Shown: one piece after another, positions 30,102-54,100 of the stretch | Position numbering within the stretch: position 1 is the stretch's first letter | How the letters are laid out: each line of letters begins with the position of its first letter | From: Hygrophila difformis | Taxonomy: Eukaryota > Streptophyta > Magnoliopsida > Lamiales > Acanthaceae | Assembly: GCA_030278955.1 (NCBI GenBank) | Contig: JAOANR010000015.1 | Location: 35,496,487-35,560,486 of the forward strand | Length of the DNA: 64,000 nt | Direction of reading: 5' to 3' | Made by a program: the position numbers and the translations under genes | The notes under the pieces: generated by a model | Told to the model about the DNA's origin: nothing | The model's database searches: none | What the model saw: only the letters and a program-made list of their open reading frames with translations

Positions 30102-33100
30102 ATGGGAATCACGAATCCTGTCACCATTTTCCTATTGCTCTTTGCAGTCCCATTATTGCCGTCAGCCGCTGTTTCTTCTGGAGATCAATCGCATCTGGGA
30201 AACAGCGGCGACTGGAATGAGAGCAGACAAGTGATAGAGCTGGACGGTGACCCAGATGATGTGGCGTGGGTGGTGCAGCTCTCCGATCTTCACTTTAGCG
30301 TGCATCATCCCGATAGGGCACAAGACTTCAGGAAGATTGTCGGTCCGACGCTGTCGTTCGTCAAGCCTTCTTTGGTCTTCCTCACTGGCGATCTCACGGG
30401 TTAGTTCCATGGAGTGTTGATTCCTATCATTCTCGATCATTTTGGAGTTGATTGATGCGTTTAGCGGTTTAGGGTTTATTTATTTATTTTTGTGACATTG
30501 ATGAATTTTTGGAGGTGTTCTTATCATTCGGATACTTTGTAAAAGATTAAAGATGCTGTCATCGTTACAGAGTAGCTTTAGGAATTTCTAAAAGGATCAA
30601 TTGGCTTGATTTGGTTGAACTTAATCTCTTTTGATGTCTGAATTTCGAAGGGTAGAAATTTCTGTTAATAAAGTTGATTTTCAATGGGTGAAAGTTGACT
30701 GTGGCCTGTCAGACCTCGCCAGTTACTTTTCTGCCCGCCGCTTTACTGCCATTAGTTTTTTACCCGAAAAGACTGAAAACCCTTTGGCCCGGATGCTTGG
30801 CCCGGGCCGGGCCAAGCAGATAGAACCGGGCCAAGAGTAATCCAGGCTTATCCAAAATTGTTCTTGATTAGAGGTGCTTGACCCGGAACGATTAAGCTTG
30901 GCCCGTCGGGCCAAGTTGTTGAGTGTCCCGGCCAAGACCTTGGCCAGTGCCTATTTGCTTGGCCGGTGTCATTTTGCTTGGCCCGTGACATAATGTGTCC
31001 GGGCCAAGCGCTTGGCCAGTGCCTGTTTGCTTGGCAGGTGGCCTTGTCTCTTGGCCCGCGCCTAAATTGTTCCGGGCCAAGCCTCGGGAAGGCCGAAAGC
31101 TAGTCAATTGTCATTACGTGCAGCATTTATTCCCGTCCTGTGAGTGCATGGAATATATTCTTCTCCATAACCTCCCCCACCACGCACATTCATTGTTCAA
31201 CTTCCTCTCCACCATTTTCGTTCAAATTTTTTGGACAGATCTAGATATTTTCAAAACACTGCCACCAAGGAGATACCCCGACGGTGATATACCACCATTC
31301 GCACTGCCACCATTTTCGCCGTCCGACGTGCATGCTCCTCCGGTTGAGCTCGGGTTCGTTGAAAAATTTTTCTCGTTCGTATTATTTTGGTTGCACTATA
31401 ATTTTTTTGTCGCACATTTGCTTTCTATTGATTAATCTCTTGTTATTATTTCAGATCCGACGTGTAGGGCTAGCGAAAGTTTGAGTTTGGGCGAAGATCC
31501 GAACGACTAAATATCTATTGTAAGTTTTTTTTTTTTTTCTGATTAATTGTTTAAATGAATATGTTTCATTTTCCGTGTTCATCAAAGAGATAACCTAAAA
31601 GATTTTTCGTGTGAAGTCATGAATTTCTGTCTAAACTACTATAACAATAATTAACTCGAGGGTTTTATGCTATAATATCGAGAAATGTTAGTGTTTTATG
31701 CGATTTTGTTCATGCAACGCCCGTGGGCCAAGCACTGTCGAGCAACCAGTGTTTGGTTCTGCATCCTGGTGCTTGGCCCGGACTCCCACCTTGGCCTGGC
31801 CAAGGAGCCGGGCCAAGCGGGAAGTGTGCTGTAGGGCTCAGGGTTCAGGGTTGTAAGTTGTTGCTCTGGATTCATGCAAATTGAGTGGACCAGGCACTGT
31901 CGAGCAACCAGTGTTTGGTTCTGCAGACTGGTGCTTGGCCCGGATTCCCATCATGGCCGGGCCAAGTTCCCTGGCCAAGCTGATTTTTTTTTTTTTTTTT
32001 TTTTTTTTTTTTGTTATTTTGGGTGAAATGTTTAATTTTTTTTGGAACTGTGTTTGGTGCAGTTGCACTATTGCGCGAAAGTAATGTCCTCTTGGCTGTT
32101 TGGTTCGGGAGGGCTGTTTGGAGGGGACGGGAACACCGGAAATGACATTGAGCACAATGATAATCGTAAGTATTTATACGTGCTGTATATACCTACAAAT
32201 ATATATTCAAAATATTTTTTTTAGCTGCATAATATTTTCAATTAAGCGAAATTTCAATCCTTGGATGCATGTTAGTTAGATATGTTAGACTTAATTCTTT
32301 AAGTTGTTATGCACATGGTTAATTTGTTAATTTTGTGGGGAGTTTGGCTTACCATTCTTATGGTGTTGTTGACTATGTGTAAGAGATTTAATAAGGCTTC
32401 ATTACTTGTATTATTATTATTATTATTAGTATTATTATTATTATTATTATTATTATTATATAAGTATAACATACAAAGAATTTTGTGGAAATATTTAAAA
32501 ATTAAAGTAATATATAACAAATTATAATAAGAATTTTACATCGTTATTTATATTATAGAGATAAGATTAAGCGATGAAATGTTGGACTTTATCTGAAAAA
32601 TAGAATATAAGACTGTACGAAAAAATGAGATTACAAGAAAATTGTGTTTACTTACATTATTTTTATCTAGTATTATTATTTTATTACATTTTTCTTAGAG
32701 CAGAATAGTTGAAGAAATTGTATTATGAATTTAATAAAAAAATTTTAAATAAAATAATGCAAATATGAAAATAATAAAAAAATTATTAATTAAAATAATG
32801 CAAATATAAAAATACTTAAAAAGCAACGAAGAGAATATTATTATTTTAATAATTGAAATAATGCAAATATAAAAATAAAAAATATAAAAATAATGCAAAT
32901 TTAAAAATAATAAAAAGATATTATTATTATAATAATTAAAATAATGCAAATATAAAAATAATTAAAAAAATATTATTAATTAAAAGAATAATTGGTCTAT
33001 TTTTGTATTACTATTCATTTTAATTATAATTATTTTGTAAGTATAAATGAAAAGAAATAGTTTAACAATGTTTTTTAAAAAAAAGATCAAGATTGTAAAT

Positions 33101-51100: not shown

Positions 51101-54100
51101 ATAATAAAGGGGCATCGGGAGAAGAAACATTACGAGCCGACATAATAAAGGGGCATCGGGAGAAGAAACACTATGAGTCGACATTCCAAATATTACTCCT
51201 TTAGGGAGGTTGAGAGAGGTTGAACATAGGGAGAAGAAATGCAATGGGTACAACAGTAATTACTATTCTAATAGTAATTACTCCTTTCGTGTCATAGTTA
51301 CCTTCATAAAGATCCACCTGCATCTGGGGGCAAATCATCTGGAAACGGAATGATAAACAAAGACGAGGTTGTCGTGACAGGGGATGGTGATAGTTAATCT
51401 GATGATGAATCATAAGAGAGCCTAGTTCAATTACGTATTGTCTTTATATTATTATTATTGTTATTATTATTATTATTATTATTATTGTTATTATTATTAT
51501 TATTATTAATATAAAAAAATAAGATTAAGAAGAGACAAAAAAAAAGAACTTAAAAAATTTAAGAAATAAAATACAATATAAAATTAGAAAAATGAAACAA
51601 ACAAAATGAGAACAATAAGAAATTAACCAAAAATAAATATGAGAAAAAATAAGGGAAAAAAGAGAAAAAATTAAAAAGAGAGAAAGAAAAAATGAAACAA
51701 AGCAAAAAAAAATAAGACAAATTGAGAAAAAAGCGAGAAAAAATAGAAAATGACCAAAAATGAGAAAGAAGAAGAAAAAATAAGAAAAAAGAGAGAAAGA
51801 AAAGGAAAAAATAATAAAAAAGAGAGAAAAAAAGAGAAAAAAATAAGAGAAAAGAGAAAGAAAAGGAAAAAATAAGAAAAAAAGAGAAAGAAAAGAAAAA
51901 TGAGAAAAAATAAAAGAAAAACAAGAAAAAAAGAGGAAAAAAAATAGAAAATAACCAAAAATGAGAAAGAAGAAGAAAAAAGAAAGAAAAAAAGAGAGAA
52001 AGAAAAGGAAAAAATAAGAAAAAAGAGAGAAAGAAAGGGAAAAAATAAGAGAAAAGAGAGAAAAGGAAAAAATAAGGAAAAAGGGAAAGGAAAAAAATGA
52101 GAAAAAATAAAAGAAAAACAAGAAAAAAAAGAGGGAAAAAAAATAGAGCAAGAAAATAAGAAAAAAAAATTGAAAAAATTGTGGGTAAAAAAAAGAGAAA
52201 TAATTTTATAAAATTACTACTATTTATAATAAAAATTATTTTATTTATAAAATCTTTATAGAAAATAATATTTTTAAAGAATAAAAAAATTAAAATTATA
52301 CTAATTGTAATAATAATAATAATAATAATAATAATAATAATAATAATAATAATAATAATAATAATAATAATAATAATAATAATAATAATAATAATAATAA
52401 TAATAACAGAAACAATTAATATATATTTATGTGTATTGAATAACCCTAACTTGGCCCGGAAAACCCTAAAACCTAGCTTGGCCCGGGCATGTTTATGCTC
52501 CGGGCCAAGTGGATAGGGCCGGGCCAAGTGCATGCTAATTACGTTTTATTAATTAAAGCTTTGGCCAGGGCATTACATTTGGCCCGGTCCGGGCCAAGTG
52601 TCCGGGCCAAAGGCTTTTCAGTCTTTTCGGGTAAAAAACTAACTTGCGTAAGGCGGCGGGTAATAAAGTTACTGGCGTTATCTGACAGGTTAACAGAGAC
52701 CATTATCTGTTTTCAATTATATTTTGTCTAGGTTTCCATTTTCGAGGAATTGTTAATTCGATTTGTGTCTCCTAATTTTCATGCTTCTTTCCTTACAATT
52801 ATCATTGTATCAATGTATCAATTCTTGAGCTTCACTGACGTTTGATGACTTGAATGACACACTAAACAGGGACCCGATGTGATCTCTGTAACAAGAATTA
52901 TTCTGGGTATACCTTATGGTTCATGCTAGTTGTCTAGTTCCATCCTCTTTTGAGCAGAAGTGTTGTCATTTAACATTAGACCGCCAACTGCAGCAGCATG
53001 CACGTCCCCATTGGGAATACTGAAACCGGTTGAACTTATATACCATAATTACAGTTACTTTACCTCCTTTTCAATGTAATGAATATAATAGTTTTCCTAA
53101 AATAGTGAGAATTTGTGGAGTATGTGAACGCTGAATGATCTGATACATATGTTGCTTACTTATTTGAGATTGCTTCTGCCTCCAATGCTTCAAGGTTTGT
53201 ACTCACATTCCAGATATCAGAATATTGACCTTATTTGTACCTAGCAGATGGTAAAAGCAAGGACTTACTTACAATGAAACAAGATGAGCAAGAGTGGATA
53301 GAATATGAGGAAGTCTTGAATGAAGTTGTCAAGAGGAGTGGACTCGATAAGAAATTTTTTTATGATGTTCGGGGCAATCATGATAACTTCGGTGTTCCTG
53401 AGATTGGTGGGTCTTTTGATTTTTTCTCAAAATACAGCATCAACAGGCAGCTTCGAAGAAATGGAAAGGTCAACAGCATTACCATTCAGGTAGCGTTCTT
53501 GTTTACTTTATGTTGTGTTGCAATGGTTTCAAATTTGGTACATTAGATTTGAGATTTTATTTAGACTTGTAACTTTTTCTCCTGGTTTCTTTTTGCTTTC
53601 TTTTCGGGGCATTACACTGGTGCCATTTGTTTAAAAAGTAAAACTTTTGCTTAACTTGCAAAACTATTTAGCTGAGTGTCTTACACTTTGCAGATGAACG
53701 ACAGAAAGATTCTTTTTGTTGGGTTTGACAGCACAATGTCTACAGGGTTACGGGGCCCTACCAACTTGTTTGGACACCCAACGGATGACCTCTTAGCAGA
53801 AATAGATTCTGAACTCTCACAGTGGGATTCTATACCAGCTCAATCAGTAACCAAGATAACTTTTGGCCATTTTCCTCTTTCATTTTCTGCATCATCAAAG
53901 TCTGGAAAGACACTGAAGGATGTGTTCATTGCACGTTCTTTAGATGCTTACTTGTGTGGACATTTGCACACAAAATTTGGTAAAAATTTGAAGCGTCATC
54001 ATCACTGCAGCGATCTTGCTCTTTGTTCCAAACAATTAGTCCAGCTGAATGGCCATAGTAGTATTTCTGAAAACTCATATAATTGCTCTAAAGTTGCAAC

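What the first reader, a model, noticed from the sequence alone, without database searches (positions are those of the whole stretch)
30705..52689. Apparently intact 22 kb Kaonashi-type Mutator element with both transposase and Ulp1-like protease
Most plant copies of this class are decayed. Here the MURA gene has every catalytic and zinc-binding motif in one open frame, and the protease gene has the complete His-Asp-Gln-Cys set. Both are framed by matched inverted ends. This is a candidate for an autonomous master copy and a chance to ask why a transposon keeps a SUMO-protease-like gene.
Basis: partly seen in the sequence, partly recalled or inferred. Interest (0 to 1): 0.85.

Follow-up and report, generated by a model that had tools for sequence, protein, structure and literature searches.

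The report
Recently active Mutator transposon with SUMO-protease-like gene
A 22 kb plant jumping gene, with a twin copy elsewhere in the genome that has no base substitutions, carries beside its transposase an intact SUMO-protease-like gene, and its gene starts and ends carry a short repeated DNA word that is spelled differently in a related family, as expected of a transposon that recognises its own DNA to escape silencing.

Summary
The element is real but runs 30686-52709 (22,024 bp), not 30705-52689: copies share 19 further left-end bases, and 8-bp target duplications (TTTTCAAT) flank it. It sits in an intron of a TMEM62-like gene in an unnamed 915 Mb plant genome. The transposase (833 aa) needs one 90-bp intron, so it is not one open frame. 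The convergent gene has 12 predicted exons, 1118 aa, DUF1985 plus Ulp1 peptidase C48, with His-Asp-Gln-Cys intact. It is not a lone master copy: the copy at C6:11.6 Mb has no substitutions over 22,029 alignment columns, and 36 of 43 near-full-length transposase hits have no stop in exon 1. A second family (transposase 70-72% identical) has the same convergent pair in 4 of 7 hits. dN/dS between families is 0.20-0.35: purifying selection on both genes. New here: CTTGGCC(CGG) arrays (38 in the element, 1 coding, 3 in 42 kb flank) lie at both ends and at the protease gene's start; the second family has CTTGGTCC (28) and no CTTGGCC at the two matching places read. This resembles the VANDAL/VANC anti-silencing system, whose VANC protein bears DUF1985. 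Best reading: a TIR-bearing Mutator element with a VANC/KIU-like anti-silencing gene; binding and deSUMOylation are inferred.

The parts
30678..30685 (.). left target-site duplication TTTTCAAT
   Evidence: Exact 8-bp match to 52710-52717; MULE TSDs are 8-11 bp (PMC6446971, passage)
30686..52709 (.). whole element, 22,024 bp
   Evidence: Boundaries set by where copies stop being alike
30705..30815 (+). left arm of terminal inverted repeat (111 bp, 85%)
52579..52689 (-). right arm of terminal inverted repeat
30796..31979 (.). left motif arrays CTTGGCC(CGG), 21 sites, upstream of the transposase gene
33672..35713 (+). MURA-like transposase exon 1: MULE domain, DDE residues, SWIM
   Evidence: Pfam PF10551 E 2.6e-17, PF04434 SWIM 3.4e-5; DBD_Tnp_Mut 23.1 bits, below its cut-off of 25; DDE residues by alignment
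35714..35803 (+). transposase intron, GTATGT..GTGCAG, 90 bp (predicted)
   Evidence: no transcript data
35804..36260 (+). transposase exon 2 with two CCHC-like knuckles and stop
   Evidence: knuckles read by eye, no Pfam match in this piece alone
36431..41887 (.). inverted- and direct-repeat region between the two convergent genes (hairpin arms up to 737 nt, 95%)
42379..42894 (-). protease gene exon 12: peptidase C48 core with His (HW), Asp (HDS), Gln (PQ), Cys (SSCG), and stop
42975..43115 (-). protease gene exon 11
43230..43334 (-). protease gene exon 10
43457..43538 (-). protease gene exon 9
43622..43835 (-). protease gene exon 8
43930..44052 (-). protease gene exon 7
44157..44234 (-). protease gene exon 6
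44486..44719 (-). protease gene exon 5, resembling part of exon 4 (91% over 169 bp)
44802..45606 (-). protease gene exon 4, low-complexity middle region
45688..45837 (-). protease gene exon 3
45936..46691 (-). protease gene exon 2, DUF1985 (PF09331)
   Evidence: E 3.9e-11, E 2.2e-11
48091..48243 (-). protease gene exon 1 with start codon
   Evidence: family B encodes a homologous exon 1 with the same GHDPVR end before a donor site
48337..48681 (.). motif array CTTGGCC(CGG), 11 sites, at the protease gene's 5' end
   Evidence: tandem period 83 at 48483-48691
52450..52598 (.). right-end motif array, 5 sites
52710..52717 (.). right target-site duplication TTTTCAAT

Best explanation
This is a very recently mobile, probably autonomous, TIR-bearing Mutator-like element with two convergent genes. 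Shown from sequence: the MURA gene encodes a DDE transposase; the second gene encodes a DUF1985-Ulp1(C48) protein; both are conserved by selection; gene starts and ends carry a family-specific word, CTTGGCC(CGG) here and CTTGGTCC in the related family. Inferred: the DUF1985-C48 protein is a VANC/KIU-like anti-silencing factor. It (or a partner from the same element) binds the family's word at the transposase promoter, at its own promoter and at the ends, and keeps those regions free of silencing. The C48 domain would remove SUMO or a like modifier from silencing or chromatin proteins there. Because the word is private to the family, only its own copies are released and the host is spared.
For: Recent movement: the C6:11.6 Mb copy has 0 substitutions over 22,029 alignment columns, differing from the window only by 7 gaps totalling 29 bases; 8 of 65 scored transposase exon-1 hits share the top score at 100% identity. 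Both genes constrained: dN/dS between families A and B is 0.196 (MURA exon 1), 0.349 (protease exon 12), 0.293 (DUF1985 exon), 0.267 (exon 1); within A 0.21 and 0.44 (MURA), 0.31 and 0.25 (protease gene) for the two older copies examined, on few changes. H, D, Q, C are kept in all seven exon-12 sequences compared, over three families. Gene pair kept: 51 of 58 family-A transposase hits have a convergent protease exon within 60 kb downstream, 4 of 7 family-B hits do; of all 65, 0 have one upstream and 0 do after a 1 Mb shift. Motif: 38 in the element, 1 in coding, 3 in 41,976 bp of flank; block-shuffle mean 1.9, maximum 6 in 200; genome-wide CTTGGCCCGG 2520 against 331 for the reversed control, CTTGGTCCGC 1993 against 491. 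Switch: A has 37 CTTGGCC and 0 CTTGGTCC in the three array segments; B has 28 CTTGGTCC and 0 CTTGGCC in the two matching segments. DUF1985 is one of two domains marked in VANC proteins, and VANC21 target motifs lie in tandem repeats upstream of VANA21 and in VANC21 and VANB21 introns (PMC5735166). KIU is described as VANC with an Ulp1 domain (PMC13317346).
Against: No binding, methylation, expression or protease data. I cannot say which element protein, if any, binds the word. The C2:11.85 Mb copy has an 8-base insertion in the last protease exon, after residue 157, and eight hits match only to residue 157-159 of 171, so the protein's tail is not strictly kept. At 89% identity dN/dS of the protease exon is 0.52 (L064), a weak signal. 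7 of 58 and 3 of 7 transposase hits had no protease exon in the lists used. The copy at C6:6.47 Mb has identical ends and top-scoring transposase but no protease exon or DUF1985 hit; an assembly gap there was not excluded. Only one family-B element was read, and its right end not at all. A 1.95 kb stretch before the DUF1985 exon of a third family (L066) holds neither word but a telomere-like repeat. A control word was asked for five times and never answered.
Confidence: 0.5

Rival explanations
1. The arrays are subterminal binding sites of the transposase itself, as in En/Spm-type elements (recalled), and the second protein is a transposition helper like mudrB rather than an anti-silencing factor.
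For: Arrays lie near both ends; the transposase has also diverged by about 30% between A and B; mudrB is apparently required for integration in maize (PMC6446971, passage); MURA is itself said to induce hypomethylation of TIRs in maize (PMC10398659, passage).
Against: 11 of the 38 sites form an internal array at the protease gene's start, about 4 kb from the right end, where end-pairing would not need them; DUF1985 links the second protein to VANC.
Confidence: 0.25
2. The arrays are neutral tandem repeats that spread by slippage and differ between families by founder effect, or are host transcription-factor sites; no element protein reads them.
For: The A array at the protease gene has an 83-bp period and the B left end has a 136-bp duplication, so repeat turnover is real.
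Against: In the family-B element read, arrays at two places about 20 kb apart carry the same changed base and no old word, which local slippage cannot do; a fixed host factor would not explain the switch; relatives at 87-88% transposase identity still carry the A word (L070, L071).
Confidence: 0.2
3. The protease gene is a captured host fragment carried as a passenger, with no role.
For: Captured ULP sequences in MULEs are described as frequent and possibly repeated (PMC2528002, passage).
Against: dN/dS 0.27-0.35 between families with catalytic residues unchanged, and the same convergent partner in 51 of 58 and 4 of 7 hits.
Confidence: 0.05

Closest known systems
Kaonashi (KI) MULEs / KIU genes of Arabidopsis thaliana
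   Same: mudrA with an ULP protease domain in reverse orientation (PMC2528002, passage); KIU is described as VANC with an Ulp1 domain (PMC13317346, passage).
   Different: Kaonashi elements are described as non-TIR; this one has 111-bp TIRs, 85% matched, though its outermost 19-20 bases do not match.
VANDAL21/Hiun and the VANC anti-silencing proteins
   Same: DUF1985 in the second protein; short motifs in tandem repeats upstream of the transposase gene and at the second gene; motif differs between families and subgroups (PMC5735166, section 9; PMC10398659, passages).
   Different: Hosaka et al. mark DUF1985 and DUF287 on VANC proteins, and their main text holds no 'Ulp'; here DUF1985 is joined to C48. 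VANDAL TIRs are degenerate or absent. Anti-silencing is untested here.
ULP-bearing TIR-MULEs of melon and grapevine
   Same: TIRs, mudrA and ULP, in either orientation (PMC2528002, passage).
   Different: Most grapevine MuDR-like elements of high-copy families lack an intact transposase frame (PMC2528002); here many hits are open. Whether those carry DUF1985 or motif arrays I did not test.
MuDR of maize
   Same: Transposase gene plus a second gene (PMC6446971, passage); long TIRs and convergence of mudrA and mudrB are recalled, not from a call.
   Different: mudrB is of unknown function (PMC6446971); here the second gene is DUF1985-C48. I did not compare the two sequences.

Membership tests
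Mutator-like elements (MULE superfamily) | MULE DDE transposase | tested here: met
   PF10551 E 2.6e-17; D409, D471, E570 invariant in 6 of 6 aligned
Mutator-like elements (MULE superfamily) | 8-11 bp target-site duplication | tested here: met
   8 bp here, 9 bp at the C10:48.9 Mb copy; range from PMC6446971
Mutator-like elements (MULE superfamily) | long terminal inverted repeats (absent in non-TIR MULEs) | tested here: met
   111 bp, 85%; outermost 19-20 bases not inverted repeats
Kaonashi (KI) MULE | non-TIR ends | tested here: not met
   definition from PMC2528002
Kaonashi (KI) MULE | ULP domain reversed relative to mudrA | tested here: met
VANC-like anti-silencing protein | DUF1985 domain | tested here: met
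   PF09331, 43.5 bits against cut-off 35.1
VANC-like anti-silencing protein | family-specific short motif in arrays in non-coding regions | tested here: met
   one family-B element read, in two of its regions
VANC-like anti-silencing protein | causes sequence-specific loss of methylation | not testable with these tools
   needs bisulfite data
Ulp1/SENP (C48) protease | C48 domain with catalytic His, Asp, Gln, Cys | tested here: met
   PF02902 E 5.5e-7, 30.1 bits against cut-off 20.7; residues kept in 7 of 7 compared and aligned with the Salvia protein P0027. Matches to solved structures by sequence are weak: best E 0.089
Ulp1/SENP (C48) protease | cleaves SUMO | not testable with these tools
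   needs enzyme assay

The most novel reading that the evidence does not exclude
The element encodes a self-targeted deSUMOylase: a DUF1985 protein that reads a private 7-10-base word repeated at its own promoters and ends and carries a SUMO-protease domain there to undo SUMO-dependent silencing. The word and its reader have switched together (CTTGGCC to CTTGGTCC) between two families that have multiplied in one genome, A very recently and B, to judge by the near-equal scores of its hits, probably so too.
Probability: 0.33. Interest if true: 0.85.

Novelty: new member of a known kind. Interest (0 to 1): 0.62.

Why it matters
Why transposons keep SUMO-protease-like genes is open: the review that I saw in passages calls the precise function of Ulp1 in these elements unknown (PMC13317346). 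Here is a genome in which a family has multiplied very recently, both genes are intact and constrained, and a second family differs by one base in a word repeated dozens of times. Protein swap, motif swap and active-site tests therefore become direct.

Tried and rejected
My first genome pattern, CCTGTCAGACCTG, does not occur in the window; its 6 hits against 5 control hits look like chance and are not used. A splice reading with one more exon (about 44.4 kb) broke the frame when I read it by eye and was dropped; whether it is used in some transcripts is unknown. The full-length protease protein found no homologue at E 1e-5; the DUF1985 part found two, in Castilleja and Salvia. L067 lies inside a family-B intron and has no motif, L072 missed the end of its element, and L066 is another family; none is in the switch count. 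L033 did not match my end string and is not in the boundary count. In one search aligned pieces under 300 bases were left out. A control word, CTTGGGCCGG, was asked for five times and never answered. Four of the six long copies fetched (C15, C14, C9, C7:5.1 Mb) run into 500-base gaps, so nothing is claimed about their protease genes beyond the exons seen. No species name was obtained; the best named transposase hits are from Salvia, Castilleja and Perilla at 36-39%, which are Lamiales by recall. Structure prediction was not used.
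Full report
OBSERVATION. They are not the ends. Thirty loci were fetched with the left repeat. In the 29 where my end string was found, further bases outward are shared (AGTTGACTGTGG, or AGATGACTGTGG in L035), in 28 of 29 back to GGGTG (L015 is masked there), while the DNA beyond differs. The element therefore runs from 30686 to 52709. It is flanked by exact 8-bp repeats, TTTTCAAT; the copy at C10:48.9 Mb has exact 9-bp repeats, TATATAAAA. A relative with 88% transposase identity shows a similar terminus (L070). The outermost 19 (left) and 20 (right) bases are not inverted repeats of each other.

SURROUNDINGS. The element lies in an intron of a TMEM62-like gene: the downstream exon 53676-55256 carries PF24394 and PF24384; an upstream exon ending LTGDLTG stops near 30400 and the next recognisable exon starts near 53240. 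The upstream exon had no Pfam match of its own, so its place in the same gene is my reading. The assembly has 915 Mb.

GENES. The transposase has 833 aa in two predicted exons with a 90-bp intron (the count there includes the stop symbol, so 832 residues). D409, D471, E570 and SWIM cysteines C661, C663 and C673 are invariant in the six sequences aligned. The second gene runs the other way: 12 predicted exons, all 11 introns GT..AG, 1118 aa without an internal stop. It has DUF1985 (E 3.9e-11) and peptidase C48 (E 5.5e-7), both above the curated cut-offs. Exon 1 was a guess from one sequence until family B proved to encode a homologous exon 1 ending in the same GHDPVR before a donor site. Exon 5 resembles part of exon 4, 91% over 169 bp. 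A 945-aa Salvia miltiorrhiza protein has the same two domains.

COPIES AND AGE. Of 40 scored left ends (313 candidates) 11 are 100% identical, window included; of 40 scored right ends (368 candidates) 10 are. The copy at C6:11.6 Mb, with a different right flank, has no substitution over 22,029 alignment columns, only 7 gaps totalling 29 bases; its left flank is masked, so its left duplication was not read. The C10:48.9 Mb copy has 12 mismatches in four pieces of 300 bases or more, 21,594 columns in all. Its protease exons match fully but for one mismatch in the exon-1 piece, which includes 40 flanking bases on each side, and its transposase gene has 2 differences in 2589 bp. Of 65 scored transposase exon-1 hits (2801 candidates), 8 share the top score at 100%; 43 have at least 93% identity over nearly the whole exon, and 36 of these 43 show no stop (small frame shifts were not checked). 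So this is a young, multi-copy, probably still mobile family. One copy (C6:6.47 Mb) has identical ends and a top-scoring transposase, is about 2.3 kb shorter, and gave no protease exon or DUF1985 hit; an assembly gap there was not excluded.

SELECTION. Between the window and family B (transposase 70-72% identical) dN/dS is 0.196 for MURA exon 1 (dS 0.93), 0.349 for protease exon 12 (dS 1.22), 0.293 for the DUF1985 exon and 0.267 for exon 1. Non-synonymous change is significantly rarer than synonymous change in MURA exon 1 and protease exon 12 (Fisher 9e-52 and 3e-7). Within family A, two older copies give 0.21 and 0.44 for MURA and 0.31 and 0.25 for the protease gene, on few changes; a third older copy gives 0.37 for MURA exon 1 (L059). 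Together the three give 18 synonymous and 21 non-synonymous unique codon changes in MURA exon 1 (binomial p 0.0009; the copies are related, so this is approximate). At 89% identity the protease exon gives 0.52 (L064), a weaker signal. H, D, Q and C are kept in all seven exon-12 sequences compared. Against full conservation: one older copy has an 8-base insertion in the last protease exon, after residue 157, and eight hits match only to residues 157-159 of 171.

PAIRING. 51 of 58 family-A transposase hits (86% identity or more) and 4 of 7 family-B hits have a protease exon downstream within 60 kb, all convergent; of all 65 none has one upstream, and none after shifting positions by 1 Mb. The protease list used was 112 of 150 scored rows, and both lists are themselves capped, so misses may be undercounts; a few neighbouring hits may share one protease exon.

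MOTIF ARRAYS. CTTGGCC occurs 38 times in the element, once in coding sequence, against 3 in 41,976 bp of flank and a block-shuffle mean of 1.9, maximum 6 of 200. The sites cluster upstream of the transposase gene (21), at the protease gene's start (11) and at the right end (5). Genome-wide, CTTGGCCCGG has 2520 sites against 331 for the reversed control. In family B the matching left region has 17 CTTGGTCC and 2 CTTGGACC, and the protease gene's 5' region 11 CTTGGTCC; neither has CTTGGCC. CTTGGTCCGC has 1993 sites genome-wide against 491 in the control. Relatives at 87-88% identity still carry CTTGGCC (6 and 8 sites; L070, L071). The two B arrays are about 20 kb apart with unlike flanks, so local slippage alone does not explain that both changed the same base. 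Only one B element was read, its right end not at all; a further control word did not complete; a third family's stretch (L066) and a B intron (L067) have neither word.

COMPARISON. Hosaka et al. 2017 (PMC5735166; passages and section 9 seen) show VANC proteins marked with DUF1985 and DUF287, variable regions often with repeated peptides, and VANC21 target motifs in tandem repeats upstream of VANA21 and in VANC21 and VANB21 introns, differing even between subgroups by one base (YAGTATTAC, YAGTATTAT). [quoted passage not shown] A 2026 review (PMC13317346, passages) says that some VANC genes carry an Ulp1 domain (KIU), act on motifs of their own elements, and that the precise function of Ulp1 there is unknown; it cites Sasaki et al. 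2022, which is not held and which I have not read. Grapevine and melon have ULP-bearing MULEs with TIRs (PMC2528002, passages). In the listings of my seven paper searches I saw no paper on motif arrays in TIR-bearing DUF1985-C48 MULEs, but the unread 2022 paper may describe them; hence the cautious novelty rating.

MECHANISM. Shown: intact constrained genes, recent copying, arrays, and a family-specific word. Inferred: that the DUF1985 protein reads the word, that reading it counters silencing, and that deSUMOylation is the means. I put the anti-silencing reading at 0.5 and the deSUMOylation-at-the-array version at 0.33.

Noticed in passing
window 10607-12645 (+) and 13367-14620 (-): A second, apparently broken, convergent DUF1985 plus Mutator transposase pair in the same window (PF09331 E 1.3e-9; DBD_Tnp_Mut E 1.5e-6).
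   Followed up: partly
window 36431-41887: Dense inverted repeats between the two convergent genes (arms up to 737 nt, 95% complementary); four of the five copies that reach it have about 146 extra bases near 37829, while C6:11.6 Mb agrees with the window. Possible hairpin source of small RNAs or fast-changing spacer.
   Followed up: partly
L066 (G000:C2:7224500-7226450): The stretch before the DUF1985 exon of a third family is filled with telomere-like AGGGTTTA repeats (47 exact 8-mers), interrupted by what looks like a small inserted element.
   Followed up: no
window 19351-23081 (+): Copia-like retrotransposon frames (integrase- and reverse-transcriptase-like by eye).
   Followed up: no
window 51644-52178 and 52308-52406: Long purine-rich repeat and a perfect 33-copy TAA microsatellite near the right end of the element.
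   Followed up: no
G000:C6:6466387-6486096: Young copy with identical ends and top-scoring transposase but no protease exon hit: if no assembly gap, a natural test of whether the protease gene is needed in cis.
   Followed up: no
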